From an uncultured Oscillospiraceae bacterium (GTDB lineage: Bacteria > Bacillota > Clostridia > Oscillospirales > Oscillospiraceae): 56,657 bases of DNA. A program made the translations under genes and the position numbers. The DNA lies in NCBI GenBank assembly GCA_947626315.1, contig CANQRQ010000019.1, positions 1-56,657 of the forward strand, written 5' to 3'. Shown in pieces: positions 31,711-50,726 of the stretch (within the stretch, counting starts at the first letter, position 1; every line of letters starts with the position of its first letter). The notes under the pieces are model-generated. The model was not told the DNA's origin, ran no database searches, and saw only the letters and a program-made list of their open reading frames with translations.

Positions 31711-31818
31711 GGATTTATAAAATTTATACGTGTAATAAATCCGTATTATAGTTGACAAAAGGGGAATGTAGATGTATGATGATTCCGTAAAATGATTAAT
31801 AGTATTAATCAATTACGG
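31711..31818 (+). promoter_or_regulatory. Promoter and operators of sulfo-TK plus-strand operon
   Basis: TTGACA (31752-31757), 17 bp and TATGAT (31775-31780) form a strong promoter. Two inverted repeats flank it. Upstream lies GGATTTAT (31711-31718) with its complement (31735-31742). At the start site lies a two-part palindrome, CCGTAA and GATTAAT (31785-31800) with ATTAATC and TTACGG (31804-31818), arms kept in register by short bulges. The second repeat ends five bases before the GTG start, so it can act as an operator in DNA or as an mRNA hairpin that hides the ribosome site. Confidence 0.7.
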
Positions 31819-31822
31819 GACG

Positions 31823-32731
31823 GTGATTTTTACGGAGTCGTCCAAGGGAAATATCGCGCCGCTGCTGATCCTGCCGGTGATCTGGGGGAGCTATTATGTG
31901 GCCAGCCAGAAATGGGTGGGCTACACCTCTGTGTTCACCTCCGGCGTGGGGATCCGGCTGATCACCTTTGTGTTTTTGACCTTGATCATGATCAAGCGGA
32001 AGGAGTTCGGCCTGCTGCTGAAGACCAAGGGCGTTTTCAAGCGCCTGCTGCTCATCGGTACGCTAGGCTTCCTGCTGGATCTGACGGCTTTTATCGGCCT
32101 GTCCATGTCCTCCGCCGCCAGCGGCACGGCGCTTCTGAAATGCGATGTGCTGATGGTCAACATCATGTCCGTCATCATCTATAAGCAGCGCTTTACCTGG
32201 AAGGCCTGGGCCTGCACCCTGGTCATGCTCCTGGGCGTGTTCCTGGTCATGGGGGTCGACTTTACGAGCTTTCGGATCGGGGACCCGGGCAACATCTTCT
32301 TCCTCCTCAGCGCCTTCTTCGTGTCCTGCAACGCCTTTGTCATCAAAAGCGTCCAGCTGGACAAGAACAACCCCACCTGCGACGATGTGGTGGCCTATTA
32401 CAACAATTTTGTCACCCTGCTCTATTTCACCGCTGCCGGCCTGATCATGCACACCCTGGGCCAGTTCTCCGTGGTGCTCACGGAGCCCTGGGCCGCCCTG
32501 GCCCTGCTGCTGGCCGGCCTGGGCCAGACGCTGATCTATGTGGTCTACTACTATAACCTGCGCAACTATCCGGTCTGGCTGGTGAAGACCTTCCTGCTGT
32601 TCATGCCCATTGTCTCCACGCTGATCACCTTCCTGCTCTTCGGGGAGCGGATGGGGCTGGCGCAGTACATCGGCATGGCGGTGGTGATCGCAGGCGCCCT
32701 GGGAATTTTGCTGGAGCAGAAGCACCAGTAG
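31823..32731 (+). CDS. DMT-superfamily (EamA) permease, possible sulfonate exporter
   Basis: The 302-aa protein has ten hydrophobic helices in two EamA halves (VIWGSYYVASQKWVGYTS near the start; GERMGLAQYIGMAVVIAGALGILLEQ at the end). DMT proteins export small metabolites. It is the first gene of the operon with RpiB-like isomerase, split transketolase and iron alcohol dehydrogenase, so it may export the end product isethionate; this is inferred from position only. It uses a GTG start at 31823 and lacks a good Shine-Dalgarno site apart from ACGGGA inside the hairpin. Confidence 0.8.
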   Translation: MIFTESSKGNIAPLLILPVIWGSYYVASQKWVGYTSVFTSGVGIRLITFVFLTLIMIKRKEFGLLLKTKGVFKRLLLIGTLGFLLDLTAFIGLSMSSAASGTALLKCDVLMVNIMSVIIYKQRFTWKAWACTLVMLLGVFLVMGVDFTSFRIGDPGNIFFLLSAFFVSCNAFVIKSVQLDKNNPTCDDVVAYYNNFVTLLYFTAAGLIMHTLGQFSVVLTEPWAALALLLAGLGQTLIYVVYYYNLRNYPVWLVKTFLLFMPIVSTLITFLLFGERMGLAQYIGMAVVIAGALGILLEQKHQ

Positions 32732-32765
32732 AATATATCATTGAAATCACAAGGAGAGATTCATT

Positions 32766-33239
32766 ATGCGGGTCATTATCGGTTCCGACAAATCCGGCTT
32801 TACGCTGAAGGAAGCAATCAAAGCCCACCTGCTGGAGCAGGGGCATGAGGTCGAGGACGGGGGCACCCTGGACCTGGACCATGTGAAGCCCTATTTTATC
32901 ACGGCCTCCGCCGTCGCTCCCCGTATTGCCAGCGGAGAATTTACCAAGGGTATCCTGATCTGCGGCACCGGCGCCGGTATGGCCATTGTGGCCAACAAGT
33001 ACAAGGGCGTTTATGCCATGCCCTGCGGCGACACCTATGACGCCCGGATGTGCCGCGCCATCAACGACGCCAACATCATGACCATGGGCGGCTGGAAGAT
33101 CGCGCCGGAGCTGGGCATCGAGATGGTGGATATCTTCCTGTCCACCGACTTCACCCAGGGTCTGGAGCCCTGGCGCCAGGAGTTCCTCAAGGGCGCGAAG
33201 GTCAAGGTCGAGGAGCTGGAAAAGGAAATCTACGGTTGA
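32766..33239 (+). CDS. sqwI: RpiB/LacAB-family isomerase, candidate 4-deoxy-4-sulfoerythrose isomerase
   Basis: The 157-aa protein has the RpiB fold and keeps the catalytic ICGTGAG cysteine and NDANIM loop. Three usual features are changed. The SDHAG histidine is Lys (GSDKSG). The CHDxxSAR histidine that opens the sugar ring is replaced by Gly (PCGDTYDARM). The C-terminal phosphate-binding arginines are replaced by GLEPWRQEF. A four-carbon sugar sulfonate needs neither ring opening nor phosphate binding, so these changes fit a sulfoerythrose/sulfoerythrulose isomerase (SqwI) better than ribose-5-phosphate isomerase. Position between the DMT and transketolase genes supports this. Confidence 0.8.
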   Translation: MRVIIGSDKSGFTLKEAIKAHLLEQGHEVEDGGTLDLDHVKPYFITASAVAPRIASGEFTKGILICGTGAGMAIVANKYKGVYAMPCGDTYDARMCRAINDANIMTMGGWKIAPELGIEMVDIFLSTDFTQGLEPWRQEFLKGAKVKVEELEKEIYG

Positions 33240-33269
33240 GCCGCTGAGGACCGGAAAGGACACGGGAAT

Positions 33270-34106
33270 ATGAACGTAAAAGAGACCAAGGAATTTGCGA
33301 TCAACATTCGCAAAGAGACCATCAAATGCATCGGCCATCTGGGCGTGGGCCACATCGGCGGCGCTCTGTCCATCGTGGACGTGCTGGCCGTGCTGTACAG
33401 CGGCGTCATGAACATCGACCCCGCCGACCCTAAGAAGGACGACCGGGACATGCTGGTTTGCTCCAAGGGCCATGCCGGCCCCGCCGTGTACTCCACCCTG
33501 GCCCTGAAGGGCTACTTCCCCATGGAGATGCTGAACACCCTGAACCAGCCCGGCACCCGCCTGCCCAGCCACTGCGACATGAACCGGACCCCCGGTATCG
33601 ACATGACCACCGGCTCCCTGGGCCAGGGCTCCAGCTCCGCCATGGGCATCGCCTGCGCCAACCGGCTGAAGGGCTATAACAACTATACCTATCTGATTCT
33701 GGGCGACGGCGAGATCGAGGAGGGCCAGGTCTGGGAGGCCGCCCTGTTCGCGGCCGCCAAGAAGCTGGACCATGTGATCGCCTTTGTGGACTACAACAAG
33801 TGCCAGATCGACGACTATGTGGAAAATCTCTGCGCCCTGGGCGACGTGGCCGCCAAGTTTGAGAAGTTTGGCTGGTACGCCCAGAACGTGGAGGACGGAA
33901 ACGATGTGGAGCAGATCGCCGCCGCCATCGAAAAGGCGAAGGCCCAGAGCGGGAGCGGCAAGCCCTCCGTAATCGTGCTCAACACCGTCAAGGGCAAGGG
34001 CTACAGCAAGATCGAGGGCTCCCTGGGCTCCCACAACATGCCTGTGACCGATGAAATGGTGACGGAGGCGCTCGCCGAGCTGGACGAGCAGCTGAAGGCG
34101 CTTTGA
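33270..34106 (+). CDS. sqwG: Transketolase N-terminal subunit, candidate SqwG
   Basis: The 278-aa protein is the ThDP-pyrophosphate-binding half of a split transketolase: IGHLGVGHIGGALSIVDVLAVLY, CSKGHAGPAVYSTLALKG, TTGSLGQGSSSAMGIA and the ThDP motif GDGEIEEGQVWEAA followed by VDYNKCQIDD. Split transketolases are common in Firmicutes, but this pair lies in an operon with an RpiB-like isomerase and an iron alcohol dehydrogenase, as in the sulfo-TK pathway. There it would take two-carbon units from sulfofructose and again from sulfoerythrulose. The C-terminal subunit follows after 17 nt. Confidence 0.85.
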   Translation: MNVKETKEFAINIRKETIKCIGHLGVGHIGGALSIVDVLAVLYSGVMNIDPADPKKDDRDMLVCSKGHAGPAVYSTLALKGYFPMEMLNTLNQPGTRLPSHCDMNRTPGIDMTTGSLGQGSSSAMGIACANRLKGYNNYTYLILGDGEIEEGQVWEAALFAAAKKLDHVIAFVDYNKCQIDDYVENLCALGDVAAKFEKFGWYAQNVEDGNDVEQIAAAIEKAKAQSGSGKPSVIVLNTVKGKGYSKIEGSLGSHNMPVTDEMVTEALAELDEQLKAL

Positions 34107-34123
34107 AAGAAGGAGGAACTACC

Positions 34124-35179
34124 ATGAGTGTTAAAGTTGCTGCCAATCACGGCATGGGAGATAAAGAGCTGCGCAAGGAGTTCTGCGAGACCCTGATCGC
34201 CATGGCCCAGGAGGATGAGCGGGTCGTCGTGCTGGACGCGGATCTGATGAACGCGGCCGGGACCAAACCTTTCCGGGCCGCTTTCCCGGAGCGCACCTTC
34301 GACTGCGGCGTGCAGGAGGCCAACATGATCGGCGTGGCCGCCGGTCTCTCCTCCCGGGGCTTCATCCCCTTTACGCACACCTTCGGCCCCTTTGCCGCCC
34401 GCCGCGCCTGTGACCAGATCTTCATGTCCTGCGCCTATGCCAAGCAGAACGTGAAGGTAGTGGGTTCTGACCCCGGCATCACGGCCGCCCTCAACGGCGG
34501 CACCCACATGCCCTTTGAGGATCTGGGTATCATGAGCACCATCCCGGAGATGACGGTGGTGGAGCCCTGTGACGCGGTGTCCGTGGGCAAGGTGACCCGC
34601 CTGGCCAAGGAGACCTACGGCACCTGGTACATGCGCCTGCACCGCAAGCCGGCCCCGGTCATCTACGAGGCGGACAGCGAGTTTACCGTTGGCAAGGCCA
34701 ACCTGCTCCGGGCTGGCACCGATGTGACCATCATCGCCATGGGCTATCTGGTGGCCGAGGCCCTGAAGGCCGCCGAGGAGCTGGAGAAGGAGGGCATTTC
34801 CGCCCGGGTCCTGGATATGTGGTGCCTCAAGCCCCTGGATGTGGAGGCCGTGCTGACCGCCGCTAAGGAGACCGGCGCCATCGTCACCGCCGAGAACCAC
34901 AACGTGAAAAACGGCCTGGGCTCCGCCGTGGCCTCCGCACTGGCGCTGGGCCATCCCGTGCCGGTGGAGATGGTGGGCGTTCAGGACGAGTTCGGCGAGG
35001 TGGGCCAGGTGCCCTATCTGGCCGAGCGCTTCCACCTGACTGCCGATGAGATCGTCGATAAGACCAAGCGGGTCATGTCCCGCAAGGTCACCCGGCACAC
35101 CTGGGAGAAGATCTCCAACGATCTGGCCACGGCCATCAACGAGCTGCGCTCCTGCACCAACGACGTCTGGACCTTCTAA
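34124..35179 (+). CDS. sqwH: Transketolase C-terminal subunit, candidate SqwH
   Basis: The 351-aa protein is the pyrimidine-binding and C-terminal half of transketolase: EAFDCGVQEANMIGVAAGLS-like motif (FDCGVQEANMIG), FGPFAARRACDQIFMSCAYAK, and GSDPGITAALNGGTHMPFEDLG. With the preceding subunit it forms one active enzyme. The start at ATG 34124 is preceded by AAGGAGGAA. In the proposed pathway it converts 6-deoxy-6-sulfofructose to 4-deoxy-4-sulfoerythrose, and sulfoerythrulose to sulfoacetaldehyde, giving xylulose 5-phosphate each time. An ordinary transketolase role in pentose metabolism is the alternative. Confidence 0.85.
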   Translation: MSVKVAANHGMGDKELRKEFCETLIAMAQEDERVVVLDADLMNAAGTKPFRAAFPERTFDCGVQEANMIGVAAGLSSRGFIPFTHTFGPFAARRACDQIFMSCAYAKQNVKVVGSDPGITAALNGGTHMPFEDLGIMSTIPEMTVVEPCDAVSVGKVTRLAKETYGTWYMRLHRKPAPVIYEADSEFTVGKANLLRAGTDVTIIAMGYLVAEALKAAEELEKEGISARVLDMWCLKPLDVEAVLTAAKETGAIVTAENHNVKNGLGSAVASALALGHPVPVEMVGVQDEFGEVGQVPYLAERFHLTADEIVDKTKRVMSRKVTRHTWEKISNDLATAINELRSCTNDVWTF

Positions 35180-35206
35180 GCGAAAGTTCGTCTTTACAGC
35201 GTTTTT

Positions 35207-35233
35207 CAGCGCCTGTCCTCTGGGCAGGCGCTG
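35207..35233 (+). other. Intercistronic hairpin before iron alcohol dehydrogenase gene
   Basis: A 9-bp stem CAGCGCCTG (35207-35215) with its complement (35225-35233) lies in the 84-nt gap. No U-run follows. It may protect or trim the mRNA and so adjust the level of the reductase. Confidence 0.45.
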
Positions 35234-35263
35234 CATATAAATACGAATAGGGAGGTTATCACT

Positions 35264-36382
35264 ATGCTTTGGGAATACATTCAGCCTGTTACGATCCGCT
35301 TCGGTGAGGGCGTGCTGGGCGAACTGACGGATGTAGTCGCCGGCCTGGGCTGCAGCTGCGGCCTGCTGGTCTGCACGCCGTTCTTCGTCAGAAGCGGCCT
35401 GGCGGAAAAGCTGGTAGCGGAGAGCAAGGGCGTTCTGGTGGATATTTACAGCCAGGTCTCCCCCAATCCGGAGGTCAGCGAGGTAGACGCCTGCGCCCAG
35501 CTGATTCGGAACAAGGAGATCGACTTTCTGGTGGCCATGGGCGGCGGCAGCACCCTGGACTGCGCCAAGGCAGCCGGGACTGTCTGCTTTACCCAGGATT
35601 CCATCCGCAAATACCACGGCACCGGCGTGGCCCTTCCGGCCAAGCACCTGCCCCTCATCGCCGTGCCCAGCACCGCCGGGACCGGCAGCGAGGTCACCTG
35701 CGTCTCTGTCCTTAGCGACAGGGACCTGGGCAAAAAGGGCCCCATCGTCTCCAACAATTTCTATCCCACCATCGCCCTGGTGGATCCGGAGCTGACCTAC
35801 TCTCTGCCGGCCCACATCACCGCCGGCACCGGCATCGACGTGCTGAGCCACGCGGTGGAGGGCTACTGGAGCAAGGGCCACCAGCCCGTCTGTGACGCGC
35901 TGGCCCTGCACGCGGCCAAGCTGGTCTTTCAGTATCTGCGCACCGCCGTCCGGGAGCCGGACAACAAGGAGGCCCGGGCCAAGATGGCGGAGGCCTCTGT
36001 GATTGCGGGCCTGGCCTTCACCCTGCCCAAGACCACCAGCTCCCACGCCTGCTCCTTCCCGCTGACCAATCTGCTGCACATCCCCCACGGCGAGGCCTGC
36101 GGCCTGACGCTGGATTACTTTGCCCGCATCAACGCGGAGGCCCAGAACGGCCGTGTCCACGCCTTTGCCCGGGATCTGGGCTTCCAGGACGCCTACGCCA
36201 TGGCCGACGCCATCTATGAGCTAAAAAAGGACATCGGGCTCCGGCTGGATCTGAAGGAGTTCAACCTGACGGACGAGCAGGTGGCCGATCTGGTCCGCAT
36301 CAGCCGCCATCCCAATCTCTACAACAACCCAGTGGAGATTACCGACGAGATGCTCAACGAGATGTACCAGTCCATGCGGTAA
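35264..36382 (+). CDS. sqwF: Iron-containing alcohol dehydrogenase, candidate sulfoacetaldehyde reductase
   Basis: The 372-aa group III alcohol dehydrogenase has the NAD-binding block AMGGGSTLDCAKAAG, the conserved IAVPSTAGTGSEVTCVSVL, and metal ligands in GIDVLSHAVE and LHIPHGEACG. As the last gene of the operon it would reduce sulfoacetaldehyde to isethionate with NADH. Known sulfoacetaldehyde reductases of gut anaerobes (SarD) belong to this same family. A broad aldehyde reductase is possible. A GGGAGG site precedes the ATG, and a bidirectional terminator follows. Confidence 0.83.
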   Translation: MLWEYIQPVTIRFGEGVLGELTDVVAGLGCSCGLLVCTPFFVRSGLAEKLVAESKGVLVDIYSQVSPNPEVSEVDACAQLIRNKEIDFLVAMGGGSTLDCAKAAGTVCFTQDSIRKYHGTGVALPAKHLPLIAVPSTAGTGSEVTCVSVLSDRDLGKKGPIVSNNFYPTIALVDPELTYSLPAHITAGTGIDVLSHAVEGYWSKGHQPVCDALALHAAKLVFQYLRTAVREPDNKEARAKMAEASVIAGLAFTLPKTTSSHACSFPLTNLLHIPHGEACGLTLDYFARINAEAQNGRVHAFARDLGFQDAYAMADAIYELKKDIGLRLDLKEFNLTDEQVADLVRISRHPNLYNNPVEITDEMLNEMYQSMR

Positions 36383-36409
36383 GAATCAAATGTGACCTGC
36401 GTAAATAGT

Positions 36410-36448
36410 AAAACAGCCCCTCTGGTTACCCGCCGGAGGGGCTGTTTT
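36410..36448. terminator. Bidirectional terminator
   Basis: A 13-bp stem AAAACAGCCCCTC (36410-36422) with its complement (36436-36448) has A and T runs on both sides. It lies between the convergent iron alcohol dehydrogenase and ROK genes. Confidence 0.88.
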
Positions 36449-37665
36449 TACAGTTCAGACGGCGCGGAGAGGAAGAGCCGGTTCATCACCAGGGCCAGGG
36501 GCCCGATGAAATCCGCCTTGTCTCCCAGGCTGGAGCGGAGGAGATAACTCTCGCCATACTGAGGGTCGATCTCCCGGCAGGCGTCCATAAAGCGGCGCAG
36601 CAGAGCCGGCTGGTCAAAGAGCTTCCCGTAGAGGATCACCTGGTCCGGGGCCAGCATGGTGACGGCGTTGCAGACCGAGCGGGCCAGCATTCCCACGTCC
36701 CACTCCAAAATCTCCCACATGGCCGGGTCGTTCAGTTCCAGAAAGCGGGTAAAGTTGCGGGCCGCGATCTCGCTCAGATCCCCCTTGACCGCCCGGTACA
36801 GCTCCGGCATGGTCTCCGGCGTGCAGCGCTCCCGCAGCTGCTCCGCCATGGCGTGGGTGCCGGCAAAGGTCTCCAGGCAGCCCCGGCGCCCGCAGCGGCA
36901 GAGTCGGCCCTGGCTGTTCATGGCAAAGTGGCCGATCTCCGCGTTTTTGGAGCGCCTGCTGTCGTACACCTGCTTGTTGAGCACAATAGCGGAGCCTACG
37001 CCGGGCCCCCACTTGACAAACAGCATATTCTCCGCCTGCTTGCCGCCGCCGAAAATCAGCTCCGCCTCCGCGAAGGCCCGGACGTTGTTTTCCACCAGGA
37101 CCGGCATCCCCAGATGCTTCCGGAGCACGGAGCCCACTTGGACAGGCTTTTCCCAGATCCGGTAGGCGTGCAGACTGGCACCCGTCTCTTCATTGACGAT
37201 TCCGGGCACGGAGACGCCCACGCCCAGGACGGAAGAGGGGGGAATATTCTCTTCCTCCAGCAGGAGCAGGCAGAGATGGGCGATCTGCCGGAGAAATTGC
37301 CCCGGCGGAACGGCAGTGTTGGTCTGGAGACGGCGGAAGCGGACCCGGTCCCCCTTCAGATTGCTGACGGCGACACAGGTCTCCGGGCTCTCGATGGAGA
37401 CGGACAGCGCATAGTAGCGGTCATAATTGATGCCCAGCAGGATCTTTTTCCGGCCGGCCCGCTTGTCCTCTTCCAATTCTCCCAGTTCGCGGAGGATCCC
37501 CGCCTCGATCAGGTCCGCACAGATGACGGTCACGGTGGCGGGCGTCAAGCCCAGGGCCTGGGCGATGTCCTTACGGGACAGGGCGCTTTGATCATTGAGC
37601 AGCCGCAGGATCGCGCTGCGGTTGTTGCTCTTCAGGTTTTCCAGATTGATTCCCGTGTAGGCCAT
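36448..37665 (-). CDS. ROK-family transcriptional repressor
   Basis: The 405-aa protein joins an N-terminal winged helix (SNNRSAILRLLNDQSALSRKDIAQALGLTPATVTVICADL, in parts) to a ROK sugar-binding domain with the zinc motif CRCGRRGCLETFAG and the ROK block HFAMNS upstream of it. I start it at the ATG at 37665, behind TTGGAGGCG; the longer frame runs through the promoter. Its place between the two sulfoquinovose blocks makes it the likely local regulator, with sulfoquinovose or a derivative as inducer. Candidate operators are listed at 31711-31818 and 45637-45752. Confidence 0.87.
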   Translation of the reverse strand: MAYTGINLENLKSNNRSAILRLLNDQSALSRKDIAQALGLTPATVTVICADLIEAGILRELGELEEDKRAGRKKILLGINYDRYYALSVSIESPETCVAVSNLKGDRVRFRRLQTNTAVPPGQFLRQIAHLCLLLLEEENIPPSSVLGVGVSVPGIVNEETGASLHAYRIWEKPVQVGSVLRKHLGMPVLVENNVRAFAEAELIFGGGKQAENMLFVKWGPGVGSAIVLNKQVYDSRRSKNAEIGHFAMNSQGRLCRCGRRGCLETFAGTHAMAEQLRERCTPETMPELYRAVKGDLSEIAARNFTRFLELNDPAMWEILEWDVGMLARSVCNAVTMLAPDQVILYGKLFDQPALLRRFMDACREIDPQYGESYLLRSSLGDKADFIGPLALVMNRLFLSAPSEL

Positions 37666-37694
37666 GTCATCGCCTCCAACAAAAATACACGAGT

Positions 37695-37723
37695 AGTATA
37701 CAATGCTATTTTGCGATTGTAAA
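37695..37723 (-). promoter_or_regulatory. Promoter of ROK gene
   Basis: On the minus strand TTTACA (37718-37723), 17 bp and TATACT (37695-37700) stand 30 nt before the ROK start, so the regulator is transcribed separately from the isomerase. Confidence 0.7.
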
Positions 37724-37753
37724 GGAGTCTGACAAACTGACAAACAATAAGCC

Positions 37754-37785
37754 GATGGCGAAACACCGCAAGGTGCTTCGCCATC
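37754..37785 (-). terminator. Terminator after sugar isomerase gene
   Basis: A 14-bp stem (37754-37767 with 37772-37785, one G-U pair, loop GCAA) lies 20 nt past the isomerase stop. The minus strand then reads GGCTTATTGTTTG, a modest T-run. Confidence 0.65.
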
Positions 37786-37805
37786 AGAAAGTTTTAAATA
37801 GCTTG

Positions 37806-39146
37806 TCAGAAACGGCAGATCTCCATGCCGAGCATCCGGCCCAGGGCCTCCAGCTCCCGGCCCACCTTGGCATAGACCACTACAAAGTGGGGCTCCCAGC
37901 CGGCCTTGACGCTGTCGCAGACCAGCTTTTTGGCGTCGCTCTCGGTCTTGACCACGATGGAGGTGCCGCAGAACTGCTTGGGCTTGTCCAGGGCCTCGCC
38001 CTCGGCGATGAAGAAACGGAAGCTCCCGTCCGGATTGCGGCCCACCCGGAAGATGGTGACCTCCCCGCAGGGCCGGCAGCCGAAGTCCATCACAGGGCCG
38101 ATCTTCCGGTTGGGGTGGACGCCGACGGCGGCGCCGGTATCGGTCCGGGCCAGGTCGCAGGCGGCCATGCCGCAGTGCCAGAAAGTGACGGTGTTCTCCG
38201 CCTCGTCCAGGGAGACCGGGTCCCCGAAGAAGCTGGATTTGCCAGAGAGCTGACTGCCGATGAACATGGACAGGGCCCCGTAGGCGTCGGACTCGCAGCT
38301 GGCGGCGATGCCGTTGGCGTTGAGCAAGGAGAGAACGGTGCAGACCGGGGTGCCGAAGGAGGTGAAGAAGTCCGGCCAGCAGCGGGAGGAGATGGCGCCG
38401 ATGCCGTTTTCCTGCACGTAGCTCTTATAGGCCTTGTACAGCCGGGCGAAATCCTGCACGTTTTTCTCCGGGGTGGCGTCCAGGCCGGTGAGAGTCCGCC
38501 GGGCCTCGTCCAGCTCCTCGCTGCAGTCCTCCACGGAGTAGGCCTTGGCCTTTTCGATCAGCTCCCGGGCCTCGATGGACTCCAGGGTGACGCCGAAGCG
38601 GCTCATGAGCTCCGCGTCCAGGGCGCGGCCAAAGCCAAAGCCCTGGGGCGTGTGCCCAATGGAGGTCATTTTCAGGCCCTGAAGGGCTGTTTTGACCCGG
38701 GCGGCCTCCAGCACAGCCTTGATCTCCTGCACGACCTCCTCCTCGCCGGGCGCGCCGAAGACATATTCGAACTGGCCGGGACCCCGGAAAGCGGTGATGG
38801 CGTTGGCGGCGGAATAGGCACCTGTCAGTGAGTTGAGGCGCAGACGGCCCCCGTCAATGACGGGCTCCCGCAGCGTCCAGAGCAGGACAGGGCAGCTGAA
38901 ACGCTTGAGCACCTCGCTGGCATAGGCGGCGTTGGCAAAGGTGATATTCTGCAGGATCACCAGGTCAGGCTTCAGTGTGTCCAGATAGGCGTTCAGGTCG
39001 CCGACGGTGAGCAGCATCTTCTCCGGGCAGACAACGGTATCCGACAGGGAGCGGAGCATGTCCACAGACCGGTCAAACTGGGCCTGGGCGCTCTCCAGGT
39101 GGAAGGTGCCCACGCCGATGGGTACATAGGCTGCTTGAAAGGCCAT
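37806..39146 (-). CDS. sqvD: Fucose/arabinose-isomerase-fold protein, candidate sulfoquinovose isomerase
   Basis: The 446-aa protein starts VPIGVGTFHLESAQAQFDRSVDML and has the layout of the L-fucose/L-arabinose isomerase superfamily, including a metal-site region near AISSRCWPDFFTSFG, CESDAYGALSMFIG and FWHCGMAACDL. The same superfamily supplies the SQ-to-sulfofructose isomerase (SqvD type) in the sulfo-TK and sulfo-transaldolase pathways. Together with the GH31 enzyme upstream and the transketolase block it would close the route. It is the last gene of the minus-strand block, separated from tctA by the structured repeat. The exact sugar cannot be read from the sequence. Confidence 0.75.
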   Translation of the reverse strand: MAFQAAYVPIGVGTFHLESAQAQFDRSVDMLRSLSDTVVCPEKMLLTVGDLNAYLDTLKPDLVILQNITFANAAYASEVLKRFSCPVLLWTLREPVIDGGRLRLNSLTGAYSAANAITAFRGPGQFEYVFGAPGEEEVVQEIKAVLEAARVKTALQGLKMTSIGHTPQGFGFGRALDAELMSRFGVTLESIEARELIEKAKAYSVEDCSEELDEARRTLTGLDATPEKNVQDFARLYKAYKSYVQENGIGAISSRCWPDFFTSFGTPVCTVLSLLNANGIAASCESDAYGALSMFIGSQLSGKSSFFGDPVSLDEAENTVTFWHCGMAACDLARTDTGAAVGVHPNRKIGPVMDFGCRPCGEVTIFRVGRNPDGSFRFFIAEGEALDKPKQFCGTSIVVKTESDAKKLVCDSVKAGWEPHFVVVYAKVGRELEALGRMLGMEICRF

Positions 39147-39425: not shown

Positions 39426-39447
39426 GGGGTTGTGACGAAAAGCGCGC

Positions 39448-41016
39448 TCAGTTGGCGGCGGAGCTCTCCGGCTCGTCCATCTTGGCGTGCTCGGCGGCCA
39501 TTTCTGCCTCCTGCTGGGCGTTGAGGGTCTCGATGCGCTTGTTGACGCGCATCATGGAGACCAGCAGCACGATGGTGAGGATCAGAATGACAGCGGAGAT
39601 GGGCCGGCGGAGGAAGATGGTGTAGTCCCGGTCATAGGCCATAGAGGCGGAGACGAAGTTGGACTCCATGATTTTCTCCAAAATCATGCCCAGCATCAGC
39701 GGCGTGTTGGAGATGTCCAGCAGCGTGAGCACATAGCTGAAAATCAGGATGGCGGCGCAGAGGACCAGCTCCTTGGTGTTGCCGGTGGCGGCGAAGGCGC
39801 CGGCGAAGCAGAACATGATGATGACGGGGGCCAGGTAGGTGTACTTCACCTGGACGATCTTGGCCACGCCCCGGGTCATGCCCAGGCCGATGGGGGCCAG
39901 CAGAATGTTGGCCACCAGGCAGCCGAGAATGACGGTGTAGGCCATGACGCCCTGCTTGGTGAACATGGTGGGGCCGGGGGTGATACCGTGCAGGATGAAG
40001 GCGGACATGAGCAGCGCGGTGACGCCGTCGCCGGGGATGCCCAGGGTCAGCATGGGGATCATGGCGGAGCCGACCACCGCGTTGTTGGAGGATTCGGCGG
40101 CGGCGATACCCTCCAGGGCGCCCTTGCCGAATTCCTCGGGGTGTTTGGAGGTCCGGCGGGCCTCATTGTAGCACAGGAACTGGGCCACGCCGCCGCCTAC
40201 ACCGGGCATGGCGCCCAGAACGGAGGCCACAGCGGAGGAACGCAGGCAGGCGGGGAGGATCTTCTTGGCCTCCTTGCGGGTGATGCCCTCCTTGTCGATC
40301 TTGCTGGCGTCGTCCAGCTTGCCGCCGGAAACCTTGAAGTCGCGCAGCTTCATGACCACCTGGGTCAGGGCGATCAGGGCGATCATGGCGGGCAGCATGT
40401 CGATGCCGTATTTCAGGGTGTTCAGGCCGTAGGCCATACGGGTGACGCCGGTGACGGCGTCCATGCCCACGCAGGCCATCAGCAGGCCGATCATGCCGGA
40501 GATGATGGACTTGGGCAGGCTGTCGCCGGAGACGCCGGCAATCAGGGAGATGCCCAGGATGCCCATGGAGAAATATTCCACCGTGGTGAAGCCGGCCACC
40601 AGCTTGGTGATCAGCGAGGCGCAGACCAGCAGCAGGATGGCGGAGAAGAGGCCGCCGAACACGGAGGCAAACAGGGACACGTCCAGCGCCTTCTTCACCT
40701 TGCCCTTTTTGGCCAGGGGATAGCCGTCGAAGGTGGTGGCGATGGCGGAGTTGGTGCCCGGTGTGTTCAAGGTAATGGCGCTGATGGAGCCGCCGTACAT
40801 ACCGCCCACGTACACGGCCAGCAGCAGGATGATGGCGGTGGCGGGGTCGTCAAAGGTATAGGTCAGGGGGAGCATCAGGATAATGCCCAGTGTGACGCTC
40901 AGGCCGGGGATGCAGCCGACGATCATGCCGATGACCAGGCCGATGAGAATCATGCCTATATTGGCCAGGGAGAACACCTGGGGCAGGGCCTGCATAATCA
41001 TTTGAAAATCAGTCAT
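39448..41016 (-). CDS. tctA: Tripartite tricarboxylate transporter, large membrane subunit (TctA)
   Basis: The 522-aa protein has the TctA family motifs GCIPGLSVTLGIILMLPLTYTF, YVGGMYGGSISAITLNTPGTNSAIATTFDGYP (in parts), and GIPGDGVTALLMSAFILHGI, with about twelve membrane helices. With TctB and the binding protein TctC it imports organic acids using an ion gradient. In this operon with a sulfoquinovosidase the cargo may be sulfoquinovose or its glyceryl glycoside; this is inferred. ATG 41016 follows AAAGGAGG at a proper distance; a TTG nine bases earlier is too close. Confidence 0.9.
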   Translation of the reverse strand: MTDFQMIMQALPQVFSLANIGMILIGLVIGMIVGCIPGLSVTLGIILMLPLTYTFDDPATAIILLLAVYVGGMYGGSISAITLNTPGTNSAIATTFDGYPLAKKGKVKKALDVSLFASVFGGLFSAILLLVCASLITKLVAGFTTVEYFSMGILGISLIAGVSGDSLPKSIISGMIGLLMACVGMDAVTGVTRMAYGLNTLKYGIDMLPAMIALIALTQVVMKLRDFKVSGGKLDDASKIDKEGITRKEAKKILPACLRSSAVASVLGAMPGVGGGVAQFLCYNEARRTSKHPEEFGKGALEGIAAAESSNNAVVGSAMIPMLTLGIPGDGVTALLMSAFILHGITPGPTMFTKQGVMAYTVILGCLVANILLAPIGLGMTRGVAKIVQVKYTYLAPVIIMFCFAGAFAATGNTKELVLCAAILIFSYVLTLLDISNTPLMLGMILEKIMESNFVSASMAYDRDYTIFLRRPISAVILILTIVLLVSMMRVNKRIETLNAQQEAEMAAEHAKMDEPESSAAN

Positions 41017-41031
41017 TCTATCCAACCTCCT

Positions 41032-41496: not shown

Positions 41497-41559
41497 AGGC
41501 GTTTACCTCTCAACACATTCTGTGCGTTTTTGCGTTTTCTAGCTGTGCGTTTTTAGGAA

Positions 41560-41589
41560 GGCCGTTTGGGGGCTGAACCCCAAACGGCC
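41560..41589 (-). terminator. Attenuating hairpin between tctC and tctB
   Basis: A perfect 12-bp stem GGCCGTTTGGGG (41560-41571) with its complement (41578-41589) and a 6-nt loop lies in the 128-nt gap. The minus strand continues TTCCTAAAAACG, so termination would be partial. Such hairpins give more binding protein than membrane subunits. Confidence 0.65.
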
Positions 41590-41624
41590 CCTTCAAGCAA
41601 GGGAAGCTTCCCGGACAGGGAAGA

Positions 41625-42701
41625 TCAGGCCTGGCCGCTGAGCAGCTCGTAAGCAGCGGTGCAGCGCTCGGCGTTGGCGTTCATGGTCGCCTCGCACTCG
41701 TCGCCGTAGAGCTCCAGGTGGTTGAGCAGCACGGAATCGATCCAGGCGCTGAAGCCGTCGGCAGAGTCGTCGGCCCAGACATCCCTCATGATCTGCTCCA
41801 TATCGGCGATGAAGGCCTCGTCGGCGCCCCGGTGGGTGGCGATGCCGCCGCCGGAGGCCAGGATGCAACTGGTGAAGTCGATATCGGCGGGCAGCTCAGG
41901 GGCTTTGCCCTCGCCCACGATGCAGGGGACGGAGATGGGGCCGTCGGGAGTGGTGAAGTTGTCAAAGGTCTTGTCGGCAAAGGCCAGGATGGGGACCAGG
42001 GTGCCGGCTTCGACCTCTTCCTGGGCGGCCTGGGTGGTGCCCACGAACACGTCCACTTCGCCGTCGGTCAGGGCCTTCTTCTGGTTGGCGCCGCCGTCAT
42101 AGGGGACAGGCTGCACTCTGCCGCCGCCCAGCAGGGTCACCAGGGAGCCCAGCATCAGGTGGTACTCGGACAGGGGGTTGCCGCCGGACATCTTGAGGCC
42201 GTCGGACTGAGCTTTGGCCAGAACGTCGGCCAGGGTGGTGCCGGCAGGGGCGTACATAACGGGCGTCCGGTCGTCCACGATGCCGATGGGATCCATCTTC
42301 TCACGGTCGAAGTCCACTTCCTCCACGCCGAACTGCTTGCCGTTGTCGTGGCGGTAAATGACGCCGTAGCCGTAGACCAGCAGATCCTTGACGGAGGGAT
42401 CCTCGTCGGCGAAGAAGGTGGCCGCGGCGAAGCCGTCGCCGCCGGTCATGTTCTCGACGATGAAGTTGTACTTGCTCTGGATGCTGTTGGCGGTCTGCGC
42501 ATACTTGCGGGCCACCAGGTCGGCGGTGCCGCCGGCCGCGTAGCCGCAGATGATCTTGATGGTCTCGCCGCCGTTAGAGGGCTGATCGGCCTCCGCCGGA
42601 GCGTCGCCGCCGGCGGGAGCGGAAGAGCCGCCGCCGCAGGCAACCAGGGTCAGGGCCATGGCCAGAACGAGAACCAGTGCTAAGAGCTTGCTGTGTTTCA
42701 T
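41625..42701 (-). CDS. tctC: Tripartite transporter binding lipoprotein (TctC/Bug family)
   Basis: The 358-aa protein has a lipoprotein signal ending LTLVAC (Cys22), a short Gly/Ser/Ala linker, and a Bug-type binding domain (IKIICGYAAGGTADLVARKYAQT; MTGGDGFAAATFF; GTTLADVLAKAQSDGLKMSGG; VQPVPYDGGANQKKALTDGEVDVFVG, in parts). It delivers the substrate to TctA/TctB. Family members usually bind carboxylates through two water molecules; whether this one prefers a sulfonate sugar cannot be told by eye. An AGGAGG site precedes the ATG. Confidence 0.9.
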   Translation of the reverse strand: MKHSKLLALVLVLAMALTLVACGGGSSAPAGGDAPAEADQPSNGGETIKIICGYAAGGTADLVARKYAQTANSIQSKYNFIVENMTGGDGFAAATFFADEDPSVKDLLVYGYGVIYRHDNGKQFGVEEVDFDREKMDPIGIVDDRTPVMYAPAGTTLADVLAKAQSDGLKMSGGNPLSEYHLMLGSLVTLLGGGRVQPVPYDGGANQKKALTDGEVDVFVGTTQAAQEEVEAGTLVPILAFADKTFDNFTTPDGPISVPCIVGEGKAPELPADIDFTSCILASGGGIATHRGADEAFIADMEQIMRDVWADDSADGFSAWIDSVLLNHLELYGDECEATMNANAERCTAAYELLSGQA

Positions 42702-42776
42702 TTTGTTTCCTCCTGTTTTTGAATTTTGGTTCTATTTCCGTGGCGCGATGCGCCAAACAGACAGGTTTATACCACC

Positions 42777-44789
42777 TCAGCGGTCCAGACTATATTCCTT
42801 GCCGATTTTTTCAAACAGGGGAGCCCACTTGGAATCCTTCCGGTAAAACACCGGGGGCTGGCCCAGGGGGGCGGGCACCGTCCAGGTCCCCTTGCCGTAT
42901 TCCCGGCCGCTCCAGAGATGGACCCAGGGGGCCTCGGGCAGATACAGCTCCCACTGGCTCACGCCCGCGTGCCAGACCGGGGCCACCAGGATATCCGGCC
43001 CCAGCAGGTACTCAAACTGGATGGAATAGCAGGCCTCGTCCTCCTCGTGGTGCAGGAACAGGGGCCGCTGCACGGGGATGCCCCGGGCGGCGTTCTCCGC
43101 CACCTGCTCTTTCAGGTAGGGGGCCAGCTCCGTATAGACCTTTACCAGCCGGGCCAGCTGCTCCATGCAGTCCTCGTCATCGTAATACTGGAAGTTGGTG
43201 TCCGGCCGGTTGCACTCATGGGTGCGCATGACCGGGGTAAAGGCGTTCATCTCCGCCCAGCGGAGGAACAGCTCCTTGGTGCGGACGTTCTCATACATGG
43301 AGGTGTAGCCGCCAATGTCGCTGTGGGTCAGGCCGCAGCCGCTGAGCCCGGCGCTGAGGGCGGCGCAGATCACGGTGCAGAGCCCGTCGTGCCGGCTGAA
43401 GTCCACAGACTGGTCCCCGGCCCAGAGCAGGGTGCAGTATTTCTGGCTGCCGGTGCCGCCGGAGCGCATGAAGTAGACCACCTGGCCCAGCTTCCCGGCC
43501 TCCTGCACCGCCTCATAGTTGCACTTGGCCCAGAGAGCGGGGTAGTGGTTGTGCTCCAGCATGGGGGAGCGCCCGCTGGCAAAAACCAGGTCGTCCGTGG
43601 GGACATACTCCCCAAAATCGGCCATCCAGCCGTCCACGCCGATATCCAGCAGGTTCTTTTTCAGGATCTCATCCTTATACCAGCGGCAGGCCTCCGGGTC
43701 CGTCAGGTCCGCGATGCCGCAGTCAAACTCGCCGAAGTCCACCAGGTAATTGCTGCCGTCGGCCCGCTTGGCGAAGATATCCGCCTCCGCCCCCTTGGCG
43801 TACATGTCCCCGTCGCTGGCCAGGTGGGAGGTGGCATAGGCCATGAAGCGGATGCCCCGCTCATGGAGCTCCTCGATCCGTTTGGGCAGATCGGGGTACA
43901 GCTCCCGGTTGAAGCGCCAGTTCCAGTTGAGCCGCTTGCCGAAGGAGGTGTACCGCACGCCGGCCCAGTCCTGGCACCAGACGGCGGACACGGGGATGCC
44001 CTTGGCGATGCTCCGGTCCACAATGCCGAAGGAGCGCTCGCTGCCCCCCTGGACGCCCACGATGAGCCCGTTGTAGATCCAGTCCGGCAGCTCCGGCTGG
44101 CGGCCCAGGTAGGCGGACTGCTTCTCCAGCAGCTCCAGAAACGTAGGCGCGGCCTCGATGCGGACGGAAGCGGGGACCTCCCAGAACTGGAGCTCGTGGA
44201 AGTCCTCATGGCGGAAGTCAAAATCCGCGTAGGCGGTGGAGTCCGCATGGACGTAATAATGACGGCTGGAGACAAAGCTGGGCTGGGGGAAATTGGTGTT
44301 GTAATAGTCCCCGCCGGCGCCGCAGTCCTGGTCATAGCGCCAGGTCAGATAGGTGCTCTTGTCCCGGCCCACCCCCGGCTCCGAGGTCCAGAGGGGGAAA
44401 TGCCGGCCCCGCAGGTCAAAATAGGACATCTGCTCCCCGCAGCCGTAGCAGTGCTCACCCTTTTCGGCCCGCAGCCGCAGCCAGAACCGGTTGATGGCCG
44501 GATTGAGCCGGGTAAAGGACAGCACGGCGCAGTCTCCCTCCACGCGGACATCCACGCGGAGCTCGCCCTCCAGGTCCAGCCGGCAGCCTTCCGCCGTCTC
44601 CTCCAGGGCCGTAACGGCCAGAGGGCGGCGCTGAACAACGTAGTCCTGGATATCAAAATTGCCCTGGTGCATGTTCACCGTCTCCTGCCCAAGGCCCACA
44701 TAGACCATGGCGGAGTCCCGGTCGGACTGCAAAATCACGTCGTTCCCATTCCTTAGGGTAAAATCCAATGCGCTGTGCACGAGTTGCAT
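42777..44789 (-). CDS. GH31 sulfoquinovosidase
   Basis: This 670-aa GH31 enzyme releases sulfoquinovose from its glycosides. Compared with E. coli YihQ from memory, all six diagnostic residues appear at matching spacing: Gln273, Arg286 and Trp289 (in QDWAGVRYTSFGKRLNWNW), nucleophile Asp391 (WMADFGEY), acid/base Asp459 (WAGDQS) and Tyr495 (DIGGYTS). The Gln-Arg-Trp spacing (13 and 3) equals that of Gln288, Arg301, Trp304. There is no signal peptide, so glycosides are imported first. I use ATG 44789 because AAAAGGAGAA is better placed for it than for the TTG at 44795. Confidence 0.9.
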   Translation of the reverse strand: MQLVHSALDFTLRNGNDVILQSDRDSAMVYVGLGQETVNMHQGNFDIQDYVVQRRPLAVTALEETAEGCRLDLEGELRVDVRVEGDCAVLSFTRLNPAINRFWLRLRAEKGEHCYGCGEQMSYFDLRGRHFPLWTSEPGVGRDKSTYLTWRYDQDCGAGGDYYNTNFPQPSFVSSRHYYVHADSTAYADFDFRHEDFHELQFWEVPASVRIEAAPTFLELLEKQSAYLGRQPELPDWIYNGLIVGVQGGSERSFGIVDRSIAKGIPVSAVWCQDWAGVRYTSFGKRLNWNWRFNRELYPDLPKRIEELHERGIRFMAYATSHLASDGDMYAKGAEADIFAKRADGSNYLVDFGEFDCGIADLTDPEACRWYKDEILKKNLLDIGVDGWMADFGEYVPTDDLVFASGRSPMLEHNHYPALWAKCNYEAVQEAGKLGQVVYFMRSGGTGSQKYCTLLWAGDQSVDFSRHDGLCTVICAALSAGLSGCGLTHSDIGGYTSMYENVRTKELFLRWAEMNAFTPVMRTHECNRPDTNFQYYDDEDCMEQLARLVKVYTELAPYLKEQVAENAARGIPVQRPLFLHHEEDEACYSIQFEYLLGPDILVAPVWHAGVSQWELYLPEAPWVHLWSGREYGKGTWTVPAPLGQPPVFYRKDSKWAPLFEKIGKEYSLDR

Positions 44790-44844
44790 GGACAAATATT
44801 CTCCTTTTGCTGAGAAAGCTTCTCTGTAATTTCCGGGGCCGGCG

Positions 44845-45510
44845 TCAATAAAACAGCTCCCGGTTTTCGCCCAGCAGGCCGGGGAAGGCCCCCTGCCGGA
44901 TCAACGGCTCCCGCTCCGGGTGGGCGATGACCCATTTGTTCTTCTGCAGGAGCAGCCGGCTCTCCGGGTCGCCGGAGGCGGGCCGGGCCTCCAGGGGGGT
45001 GTTGGTCCCCCGGGGCAGGATGACGATATCCTTAAAGCCCCCGTCCGACACCTTGCAGGGGGACAAGTGCAGCGTGGTCTGGTACATCTCAATGGCGGCG
45101 CCCTTCTCCACGAAGAAGACCTGGGCGTCCTCCACCCGGTAGCAGTTGTCCTTAATGAGCCAGCTGTGCCCCAGGACCAGCATAAAGTCCGTCACCGCCA
45201 CGTTGATCTCGCTGCCCTTGTGGTATTCAAAACCGTTGTATGTACTGTTGCGGCCGTTGCAGTAGCCGATCTGGATGGGCATGCCTCCGTAGAGACCCTG
45301 GCAGAGCTTTTCCGCCTCCGGGTCCTGCTCCAGCTCGGGGACGGAGGCCACATAGACGTTCCCGCTTTCGGGAACGGAGGTGGCCGCCATCTTGTCCATC
45401 AGACCGGAAAAATCATAGCCGCTGACGATCCGCCCGTAGGGGGCGAAGGCCGGGTCCGTAACCGGGAGCACCGGGACTTTGTTCACCTGATTGAGACGTT
45501 CCAGCGTCAT
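44845..45510 (-). CDS. DUF4867-like cupin-type protein
   Basis: The 221-aa protein starts MTLERLNQVNKVPVLPVTDPAFAPYGRIVSGYDFSGLMDKM (in parts) and has a cupin-like core: GFEYHKGSEINVAVTDFMLVLGH and DAQVFFVEKGAAIEMYQTTLHLSPC. The His/Glu pair in EYHKGSE and the later His in TTLHLSP could bind a metal. I believe it belongs to DUF4867, a family without known function. It is the first gene of the operon with the sulfoquinovosidase and the transporter, so a sugar isomerase or mutarotase role is possible but not shown. ATG 45510 follows GGGGGAT. Confidence 0.7.
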   Translation of the reverse strand: MTLERLNQVNKVPVLPVTDPAFAPYGRIVSGYDFSGLMDKMAATSVPESGNVYVASVPELEQDPEAEKLCQGLYGGMPIQIGYCNGRNSTYNGFEYHKGSEINVAVTDFMLVLGHSWLIKDNCYRVEDAQVFFVEKGAAIEMYQTTLHLSPCKVSDGGFKDIVILPRGTNTPLEARPASGDPESRLLLQKNKWVIAHPEREPLIRQGAFPGLLGENRELFY

Positions 45511-45636
45511 ATTAATCCCCCATTCTGCCGCAAGTCCGGCAGCACAAATAGAAATGAAAATGCTCCCATGCGGCTGAATGGGGATTTTCGGCATGTGCCG
45601 CGGTTGCCGCTTTGCGGCGAGCGGCACGCCGTTTTA

Positions 45637-45752
45637 ATTATAGTGTGATTTGTCACACTATCTTTCACACCTTTACAGCCGGGCACCTTCCTGAAGCAGA
45701 AGGAGAATCCGGAAGAAGTTAATATTTATTATTAGTTTATTAAATTAACTAA
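45637..45752 (-). promoter_or_regulatory. Regulatory region of sulfoquinovosidase operon
   Basis: On the minus strand TATAAT lies at 45637-45642 without a clear -35 box. It is overlapped by a perfect palindrome, TAGTGTGA (45641-45648), TTTG, TCACACTA (45653-45660). Farther upstream, 45732-45752 forms a 21-bp palindrome with arms TTAGTT and AACTAA, symmetric at 18 positions and very similar in layout to XylR-type ROK operators. It is followed by the wider AT-rich block from 45719. Both are candidate operators; the second fits the local ROK regulator. Confidence 0.6.
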
Positions 45753-50702: not shown

Positions 50703-50726
50703 ATTGCAGAGAAAGGATAGGTCTAT

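What the first reader, a model, noticed from the sequence alone, without database searches (positions are those of the whole stretch)
31711..45752. Two facing operons make a near-complete sulfo-TK pathway for sulfoquinovose
Gene content matches each step of the sulfoglycolytic transketolase route to isethionate. GH31 sulfoquinovosidase releases sulfoquinovose and a fucose-isomerase-fold enzyme gives sulfofructose. The split transketolase acts twice, with an RpiB-like isomerase between the two steps. An iron alcohol dehydrogenase reduces sulfoacetaldehyde. A DMT permease may export the product and a ROK repressor sits in the middle. The division into two opposed blocks and the use of a TctABC transporter are unusual. 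Each single family is also found in ordinary sugar pathways, so the claim rests on the combination and on residue changes. The product isethionate would feed sulfite-reducing gut bacteria.
Basis: partly seen in the sequence, partly recalled or inferred. Interest (0 to 1): 0.8.

Follow-up and report, generated by a model that had tools for sequence, protein, structure and literature searches.

The report
Hybrid sulfoquinovose pathway in two operons
A gut bacterium carries a full gene set to break down the plant sulfur sugar sulfoquinovose by the known transketolase route, but the set looks pieced together from two different versions of the pathway, one of them normally working with a different key enzyme.

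Summary
Checks beyond family names agree: the GH31 keeps the YihQ active-site residues; the isomerase fits the sulfoquinovose isomerase model; the RpiB-like protein has K9 and I99 in place of the phosphate and ring-opening histidines and keeps Cys66; SqwH has the published RAFDR-type change. The pathway is known.

Less expected is how it is built. (1) The minus-strand operon (SqvB-YihQ-TctCBA-SqvD-ROK) has the gene order of two transaldolase-type operons, without their transaldolase and sulfolactaldehyde-reductase-like genes; the genome has no transaldolase. TctABC is therefore not unique. (2) The facing operon brings a transketolase not in one clade with those of the common sulfo-TK clusters of its genus (AU p 0.0006); 2 of 101 sampled genomes of the genus, its own included, carry it. 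(3) A palindrome, TRATTAA-N5-TTAATYA, lies before this operon and before SQ genes of other clusters; in a congener with unlinked modules, its only two genomic copies (at most one mismatch) front each. Substrates and product remain untested.

The parts
31752..31780 (+). sigma-70-like promoter of the transketolase operon (TTGACA-17-TATGAT)
   Evidence: 11 of 12 matches
31793..31811 (+). palindromic operator candidate TGATTAATAGTATTAATCA just downstream of the -10 box
   Evidence: only site with 0-1 mismatch in the 2.68-Mb genome; same motif before SQ genes elsewhere
31823..32731 (+). EamA/DMT permease, candidate isethionate exporter
   Evidence: PF00892 88.8 bits; 62-65% identical to DMT of L117, L119, L126 and L129
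32766..33239 (+). SqwI-like sulfoerythrose isomerase (RpiB family)
   Evidence: PF02502; signature D8-K9, C66, I99, L133-R137
33270..34106 (+). SqwG: transketolase N subunit (ThDP-binding)
   Evidence: PF00456; trees
34124..35179 (+). SqwH: transketolase C subunit with A51 and D123 (numbered from the TTG at 34103) at the phosphate-site positions
   Evidence: PF02779, PF02780; motif; start codon
35264..36382 (+). SqwF-like iron alcohol dehydrogenase, candidate sulfoacetaldehyde reductase
   Evidence: PF00465; SarD model 197.6 bits, under its cut-off of 700
36410..36448 (.). bidirectional terminator-like hairpin between the facing operons
   Evidence: by eye; not listed by the scan
36448..37665 (-). 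ROK-family repressor
   Evidence: PF00480; shares a branch with ROK of transaldolase-type operons, support 100
37806..39146 (-). SqvD/SftI sulfoquinovose isomerase
   Evidence: NF048012 424 bits; distribution
39448..41025 (-). TctA, large permease subunit
   Evidence: PF01970 439.9 bits
41032..41496 (-). TctB, small permease subunit
   Evidence: PF07331 69.7 bits
41625..42701 (-). divergent TctC-like substrate-binding lipoprotein
   Evidence: PF03401 18.9 bits, under the cut-off of 27; 394 relatives at E<=0.001 among the 8000 candidates scored
42777..44795 (-). GH31 sulfoquinovosidase YihQ
   Evidence: NF007746 936 bits over cut-off 553; active-site columns
44845..45510 (-). SqvB (DUF4867), putative sulfoquinovose mutarotase or ring opener
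   Evidence: PF16161 251 bits; 71% to SqvB of the transaldolase-type operon L111; start codon
45853..45881 (-). sigma-70-like promoter of the SqvB operon (TTGACA-17-TATACT), with a half-site TTAATCA just downstream
   Evidence: half-site within 45839-45851

Best explanation
This is a complete reductive sulfo-TK cassette. TctABC (inferred) takes up sulfoquinovose or its glycoside; GH31 YihQ releases sulfoquinovose; SqvB helps open or mutarotate the ring; SqvD makes sulfofructose; SqwGH moves two carbons to glyceraldehyde-3-phosphate, giving xylulose-5-phosphate and sulfoerythrose; SqwI makes sulfoerythrulose; SqwGH acts again, giving a second xylulose-5-phosphate and sulfoacetaldehyde; SqwF reduces that to isethionate, which the DMT permease may export; ROK represses. 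Shown here: gene content, residue signatures, conserved linkage, and a shared operator motif. Inferred: every substrate, the product and the direction of transport. The cassette looks like a hybrid: its minus-strand operon is of transaldolase (sulfo-TAL) type with the transaldolase and sulfolactaldehyde reductase gone, and its plus-strand operon supplies a transketolase lineage distinct from that of the common sulfo-TK clusters.
For: Family models. YihQ residues Q275, R288, W291, D393, D461, Y497. SqvD scores bimodal: at least 580 bits in 16 of 300 family genomes, no other above 115.2. SqwI signature K9 with I or V99 in 4 of 4 window-type and 24 of 24 other rows linked to an SqvD over 500 bits, while 3 RpiB-like rows keep both histidines, the host's own RpiB among them. 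SqwH A+D in 5 of 5 window-type and 17 of 19 such rows against 8 of 53 without SqvD on the locus. Window-type SqwH is in 3 of 300 sampled family genomes, all 3 with SqvD, and in G001, with SqvD; G002 is the exception. Operator: the only two genomic copies (at most 1 mismatch) in G001 front its two unlinked modules. Operons L114 and L115 have the window's minus-strand gene order with transaldolase and reductase genes in front. No transaldolase in the genome. AU p 0.0006 against one transketolase clade (rejected again).
Against: No biochemistry or expression. SqwF is under the SarD cut-off and its tree is inconclusive (p 0.19); sulfoacetate-forming genes (SqwD, SqwKL) were not searched genome-wide. 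The D of RAFDR also occurs in many transketolases without SqvD nearby, and the A occurs in 13 H-type ones. In the window no operator with 0-1 mismatch lies before the minus operon. AU tests do not reject grouping the window's SqvB, ROK and SqvD with the common sulfo-TK rows instead (p 0.26, 0.17, 0.40); for YihQ both groupings are rejected and the tree is mixed. G002 has window-type SqwGH without SqvD, though its locus is decayed.
Confidence: 0.85

Rival explanations
1. Oxidative sulfo-TK: the Fe-ADH is not the last step and sulfoacetaldehyde is oxidised to sulfoacetate, as in the SqwD/SqwKL variant.
For: The SqwF-like protein is far from SarD (197.6 of 700 bits) and only 38-44% identical to the Fe-ADH of the common sulfo-TK clusters.
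Against: A Fe-ADH of the same clade sits in the transketolase operon in all four window-type loci other than the decayed L005 (window, L004, L092, L094), and no acylating dehydrogenase or CoA ligase is among the annotated genes of the block.
Confidence: 0.08
2. The plus-strand operon serves another sugar and lies beside an SQ uptake operon by chance; SQ would then be only partly used.
For: The nearest outgroup of its transketolase (L008, L009, L021 and others) is not on SQ loci and lies by a glycyl radical enzyme in L008 and L009; G002 has the transketolase without SqvD.
Against: The SqwI signature is shared with SqvD-linked clusters; facing linkage recurs in G283; the same operator fronts both modules in G001, where they are unlinked; without this operon the genome has no transaldolase either to cleave sulfofructose.
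Confidence: 0.05
3. The cassette is a plain vertical variant of the ordinary sulfo-TK cluster of its genus, and the separate transketolase clade is a tree artefact.
For: SqwI is compatible with one clade (p 0.64), SqvD groups with the common type against the Bacteroidia, Spirochaete and Planctomycete rows; AU tests for SqvB, ROK and SqvD do not exclude the common type; trees are quick LG+G4 trees and some branches are long.
Against: AU p 0.0006 and far lower; SqvB 36-42%, ROK 27-31% and SqwF 38-44% identical to the common type, while SqvB is 71% and ROK 55% identical to L111; gene order matches L114 and L115.
Confidence: 0.15

Closest known systems
Sulfo-TK pathway of Clostridium sp. MSTE9 (SqvD, SqwGH, SqwI, SqwF; Liu et al. 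2021, known to me here through PMC9594981, PMC12890257 and PMC11659671)
   Same: Same enzyme families and the same steps, including SqvB (DUF4867) and a Fe-ADH reductase.
   Different: MSTE9 sequences were not in hand, so lineage and gene order could not be compared; an ABC permease is mentioned for MSTE9 (PMC11659671) where the window has TctABC.
Common sulfo-TK clusters of the same genus and family (L010, L011, L098-L106 and others); sulfo-TK is reported for Oscillospiraceae of rumen (PMC13219744)
   Same: SqvD 59-69%, SqwI signature, SqwG 52-59%, YihQ up to 68%.
   Different: SqvD is divergent from SqwG-H-I-F-DMT-ROK-SqvB; SqwH 44-54%, SqwF 38-44%, ROK 27-31%, SqvB 36-42%; no TctABC in the stretches fetched.
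Sulfo-TAL-type operons of the family of G408, Clostridiales bacterium 1_7_47_FAA (L111, L114, L115); called sulfo-TAL from gene content
   Same: Gene order SqvB-YihQ-TctC-TctB-TctA-SqvD(-ROK) in L114 and L115 (L114 with a TauE gene inserted, L115 without ROK); SqvB 64-71%, SqvD 68-72%.
   Different: They start with a transaldolase and a sulfolactaldehyde-reductase-like gene, which the window lacks.
Bifurcated sulfo-TK/sulfo-TAL cluster of Faecalicatena (PMC11659671; L126 and L129 have the same order of the genes I tested)
   Same: SqwGHI, Fe-ADH, DMT (63-65%), SqvD 66%; SqwH with A and D.
   Different: Keeps a transaldolase in the cluster; its transketolase is in yet another place of the tree.

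Membership tests
Sulfo-TK pathway | SQ isomerase SqvD | tested here: met
   NF048012 424 bits; none of the 9 genomes exceeds its 700-bit cut-off, the common sulfo-TK genome G006 included; bimodal scores
Sulfo-TK pathway | Two-subunit SF transketolase with altered phosphate site (RAFDR) | tested here: met
   A51 and D123; signature not exclusive (8 of 53 rows without SqvD on the locus)
Sulfo-TK pathway | SqwGH orthologous to that of other sulfo-TK clusters | tested here: not met
   one clade rejected, p 0.0006, and with further rows; MSTE9 itself not sampled, and the common type plus the rows L112, L126, L129, L134 is itself weakly rejected (p 0.034)
Sulfo-TK pathway | SqwI distinct from RpiB | tested here: met
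   K9, I99 signature and tree support 99 against RpiB rows
Sulfo-TK pathway | SqwF sulfoacetaldehyde reductase | tested here: inconclusive
   Fe-ADH present; tree p 0.19; under SarD cut-off
Sulfo-TK pathway | Isethionate produced from SQ | not testable with these tools
   needs culture or purified enzymes
Sulfo-TAL pathway | SF transaldolase | tested here: not met
   no PF00923 match in the genome (97.75% complete) at E<=0.001; best match of a transaldolase to the window 19.6 bits
YihQ sulfoquinovosidase (GH31) | Sulfonate pocket Q, R, W, Y and catalytic Asp pair | tested here: met
   Q275, R288, W291, Y497, D393, D461 align to the E. coli chain; roles of the residues recalled
Tripartite tricarboxylate transporter | TctA, TctB and TctC | tested here: met
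   TctA and TctB over cut-off; TctC only 18.9 of 27 bits, so divergent

The most novel reading that the evidence does not exclude
A sulfo-transaldolase operon was turned into a sulfo-transketolase pathway by module exchange: it lost its transaldolase and sulfolactaldehyde reductase and was paired with a facing transketolase operon whose SF transketolase was recruited separately from a pool of related split transketolases. One ROK repressor and one palindromic operator, TRATTAA-N5-TTAATYA, are common to sulfo-TAL, bifurcated and sulfo-TK clusters and let the modules work together even when unlinked. SqwI is the shared constant, an isomerase that lost its ring-opening histidine because its substrate cannot form a ring.
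Probability: 0.5. Interest if true: 0.7.

Novelty: new variant of a known kind. Interest (0 to 1): 0.58.

Why it matters
The choice between transaldolase and transketolase decides which sulfonate a gut bacterium excretes (C3 or C2), hence which sulfide producer it feeds. Evidence that the halves of the pathway are exchangeable modules, with an operator motif in common, means the product cannot be read from sulfoquinovosidase or SqvD alone. The operator and the SqwI signature give simple sequence tests for SQ genes that are unlinked or in fragmented genomes, and the SqwI residues bear on an open point, since by 2022 its activity had not been measured directly (PMC9594981, passage read).

Tried and rejected
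Rejected: an ordinary pentose or fucose pathway (SqwI and SqvD signatures); a sulfo-TAL or bifurcated pathway (no transaldolase); phosphoketolase recycling of xylulose-5-phosphate (no PF09364 match in the genome); TctABC as a feature peculiar to this cluster (it is in L113, L114 and L115, 3 of the 26 SqvD loci); foreign composition of the block (GC 57-64%, left flank 58-68%; the drop to 38-43% begins only at the glycosyltransferases after 46 kb).

Led nowhere: no PDB relative of the isomerase by sequence; no Rfam match in 26000-50000; no shared word of 11 bases or more between the DMT and SqvB upstream stretches; literature on TTT, TctC, ROK or operators with sulfoquinovose; a structure of the TctC-like protein. 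MSTE9 could not be sampled. Weak points: I relaxed the operator consensus to R and Y after seeing sites in other loci, so the counts are partly circular; the strict motif was set from the upstream stretches printed (window and G001), that is, from sites that include those it then found, and what is not circular is its absence elsewhere in those genomes. The reversed control also puts 6 of its 11 hits upstream of SQ genes, so AT-rich promoters explain a part of the operator count.
Full report
Gene content. The window is contig C19 of a 2.68-Mb, 68-contig genome. Between 31.8 and 45.5 kb lie two convergent gene blocks. Plus strand: EamA/DMT permease, RpiB-family protein, transketolase N and C subunits, Fe-ADH, with gaps of 34, 30, 17 and 84 bases. 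Minus strand, in order of transcription: DUF4867, GH31, a TctC-like lipoprotein, TctB, TctA, a fucose-isomerase-related protein, ROK. Apart from the unproven transport steps, nothing of the reductive sulfo-TK scheme (PMC12890257, section read) is missing.

Enzyme by enzyme. GH31: 936 bits to NF007746/PRK10426, whose cut-off is 553 (the PDB chains are labelled YihQ or sulfoquinovosidase for E. coli and a second bacterium, alpha-glucosidase or GH31 for the two best). Aligned to the E. coli YihQ chain 5aed, the window keeps Q275, R288, W291, Y497 and the aspartates 393 and 461; their roles as sulfonate pocket and catalytic pair are recalled, while chain 5aee printed has N at the column of 461. 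Isomerase: 424 bits to the SftI model, cut-off 700, with no match over that cut-off in 9 of 9 genomes tested; no PDB relative by sequence. In 300 genomes of the family, SqvD scores are bimodal: 16 genomes at 580 bits or more, the window included, and no other match above 115.2.

SqwI. RpiB enzymes use a histidine (E. coli His99) for furanose ring opening and a histidine (E. coli His10) at the phosphate (PMC3755991 and PMC4783025, passages read). The window protein has I99 and K9 there and keeps the catalytic Cys66. K9 with I or V99 is found in 4 of 4 window-type rows and 24 of 24 other rows linked to an SqvD over 500 bits; three ordinary RpiB-like rows, among them the host's own RpiB (L001), keep both histidines; six further rows, L012, L016, L022, L031, L033 and L054, have K, L or R with I or V (37 rows in all). 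Later rows L112, L126, L129 and L134 agree; L121 has SDG. A mechanistic reading, by inference: 4-deoxy-4-sulfoerythrose has no hydroxyl on C4 and cannot close a furanose ring, so a ring-opening histidine is of no use. [quoted passage not shown]

Transketolase. Faecalicatena SF transketolase was described as RAFDR in place of RSFHR (PMC11659671, section read). The window SqwH has A51 and D123 (numbered from the TTG at 34103) at the S and H positions; the C. hydrogenoformans split enzyme 6yaj has S and H. Of 80 rows, A with D occurs in 5 of 5 window-type rows (three of them, L004, L005 and L094, without SqvD on the locus), 17 of 19 other rows linked to SqvD over 500 bits, 3 of 3 rows with SqvD at 300-500 bits, and 8 of 53 rows with no such SqvD on the locus. 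The D is thus typical of a wide group of split transketolases, and A alone is not informative (13 H-type rows have it). So the motif agrees with SF as substrate but does not prove it.

Two lineages of SF transketolase. The closest relatives (L004, L005, later L092 and L094; 73-88%) form one clade with the window. The transketolases of the common SqvD-linked clusters are 52-59% (SqwG) and 44-54% (SqwH) identical and form another clade, each lying among transketolases without SqvD nearby. Holding window-type and common-type rows as one clade is rejected, AU p 0.0006 on 49 rows. With L112, L126, L129, L134 and L016 added (54 rows, L016 with SqwG only) it is rejected again, as are window-type plus L112, L126, L129 and L134, all three sets together, and window-type plus the Bacteroidia and Spirochaete rows (p 0.0012); common-type plus those four rows gives p 0.034. 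These are quick LG+G4 trees. By contrast SqvD (support 96 for one side of a branch) and SqwI (p 0.64) are compatible with a common origin of both types, and SqwF is undecided (p 0.19). In the window's genus 65 of 101 sampled genomes have SqvD at E<=1e-100, but only the window genome and G375 have the window-type SqwH; the next score is 373 bits. G375 and G001 (the genome of L004) give identical coordinates and contig length and are taken as one genome. In the family sample of 300, window-type SqwH is in 3 genomes (G000, G283, G286), all with SqvD. For 26 loci, 23 without SqvD on the locus and three with only a weak match, I searched the genomes: two have an SqvD elsewhere (G408 747 bits, G405 594), the rest only matches of 137 bits or less or none.

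Origin of the minus operon. Of 397 genomes of that family, 26 have SqvD at E<=1e-90, and I fetched all 26 places. Thirteen of these loci carry both transaldolase and reductase homologues. L114 reads TAL-reductase-SqvB-YihQ-TauE-TctC-TctB-TctA-SqvD-ROK, and L115 reads TAL-reductase-SqvB-YihQ-TctC-TctB-TctA-SqvD. The window's minus operon is this arrangement without the first two genes. The window genome has no transaldolase-family gene and the window no match to the two L111 proteins above 19.6 and 23.5 bits. In trees the window's SqvB (99), ROK (100) and SqvD (99.9) share a branch with sulfo-TAL-type rows, but AU tests that hold the window-type proteins with the common sulfo-TK rows are not rejected (p 0.26, 0.17, 0.40); for YihQ both groupings are rejected and it lies near both L010/L011 and L111/L115. 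Gene order is therefore the stronger argument.

Modules and their linkage. G283 (L092, another genus) has the same facing arrangement up to its contig edge. In G001 the sqwIGHF module (L004) and YihQ-SqvD-ROK (L090) are on different contigs, and in G286 TctB-TctA-SqvD (L093) and DMT-SqwIGHF (L094) likewise; in both genomes the SqvD piece lies near a contig end. In G002 (L005) SqwG, SqwH and ROK are open, DMT and SqwI are in pieces in different frames, SqwF is missing, and the genome's best SqvD match is 47 bits. That looks like a decaying copy; it was only described.

Operator. A palindrome TGATTAA-N5-TTAATCA at 31793-31811 follows the -10 box of the plus operon. With at most one mismatch it is the only copy in the window genome; in G001 there are exactly two, one before SqwI and one before YihQ, the heads of the two unlinked modules; the reversed control pattern gives none; G283, G286 and G002 have none at that stringency. 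In the window alone the count is not unusual at 3 mismatches (2 found, 0.57 expected, 12 of 100 shuffles as high). With the relaxed form TRATTAA-N5-TTAATYA, 66 SqvD-linked loci (1.21 Mb; L004 and L094 put there by hand) have 25 exact and 49 sites with at most one mismatch; 59 loci without SqvD (0.97 Mb) have 0 and 2. Of the 49, 30 lie within 300 bases upstream of an SQ gene, in 27 loci, and 19 do not. Three control patterns at one mismatch give 11, 0 and 1 hits in the first set (6, 0 and 0 upstream) and 4, 3 and 4 in the second. L001-L003, L084-L089, L091, L108-L110 and L138 were left out of that count, some loci are close relatives, and the relaxation was made after seeing sites. The upstream sites precede TAL, YihQ, SqvB or SqvD in sulfo-TAL-type and related loci, SqwG or SqvD in common sulfo-TK loci, and SqvD or SqwF in L126 and L129. 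That ROK binds them is inference. In the window the minus operon has only a half-site (TTAATCA) after its -10 box, so joint control of both operons is not shown for this genome.

Transport and carbon flow. TctA and TctB are clear; the TctC-like protein is a divergent branch (18.9 bits, cut-off 27) with relatives that one source names TctC. A TTT is a putative sulfolactate importer in Taurinivorans muris (PMC10507020, passage read), so a sulfonate substrate is plausible. With neither transaldolase nor phosphoketolase found, xylulose-5-phosphate would have to pass through the host's other transketolases and a sedoheptulose-bisphosphate route; this is inference.

What is in print. Sulfo-TK in Oscillospiraceae is described for rumen (PMC13219744, passages and part of one section read) and for six Oscillibacter MAGs of mice (PMC12330013, passages read). 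The bifurcated TK/TAL pathway is described for Faecalicatena (PMC11659671, abstract, sections and passages read). Searches for sulfoquinovose with TTT, TctC (67), ROK family (89), and operator plus repressor plus transaldolase (90) gave 1, 2, 0 and 1 papers: the Taurinivorans paper, two plant papers and a glycolysis review, the last three seen as listings only. The library is open-licence PMC; the primary Liu et al. 2021 paper was not read.

Verdict. New to me is the architecture: a hybrid of sulfo-TAL-type and sulfo-TK modules, a separate transketolase lineage, a shared operator motif and a residue signature for SqwI.

Noticed in passing
L008:9959-17180 and L009:5038-15800: The outgroup of the window transketolase lies near a glycyl radical enzyme (TIGR01774 family, nearest to hydroxyproline and sulfopropanediol dehydratase models, all under cut-off); in L009 also a radical-SAM activase, a Fe-ADH and a HpaB-family flavoprotein. 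The pathway is unknown to me.
   Followed up: partly
53 of 300 family genomes (336-406 bits): A split transketolase 49-60% identical to the window SqwH is widespread in the family; none of these 53 genomes is among the 16 with SqvD. Its substrate is unknown.
   Followed up: no
window 46249-56415: GC falls to 38-55% over glycosyltransferase-like genes and a MenD/acetolactate-synthase-like ThDP enzyme (50727-52466), which looks like a polysaccharide island next to the SQ cluster.
   Followed up: no
window 25589-31123: Type I pullulanase, a glycogen-debranching-like enzyme and a phosphotrehalase-like GH13 in a row upstream of the SQ cluster.
   Followed up: no
L005:9349-11824: Decaying copy of the transketolase module: DMT and SqwI in pieces in different frames, SqwF missing, SqwG and SqwH open.
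   Followed up: partly
   Followed up: partly
L016 (Planctomycetota MAG contig): SqwGHIF, a transaldolase homologue (64%) and SqvB (53%) with only a distant SqvD-like protein (29%): perhaps a bifurcated cluster in another phylum.
   Followed up: no
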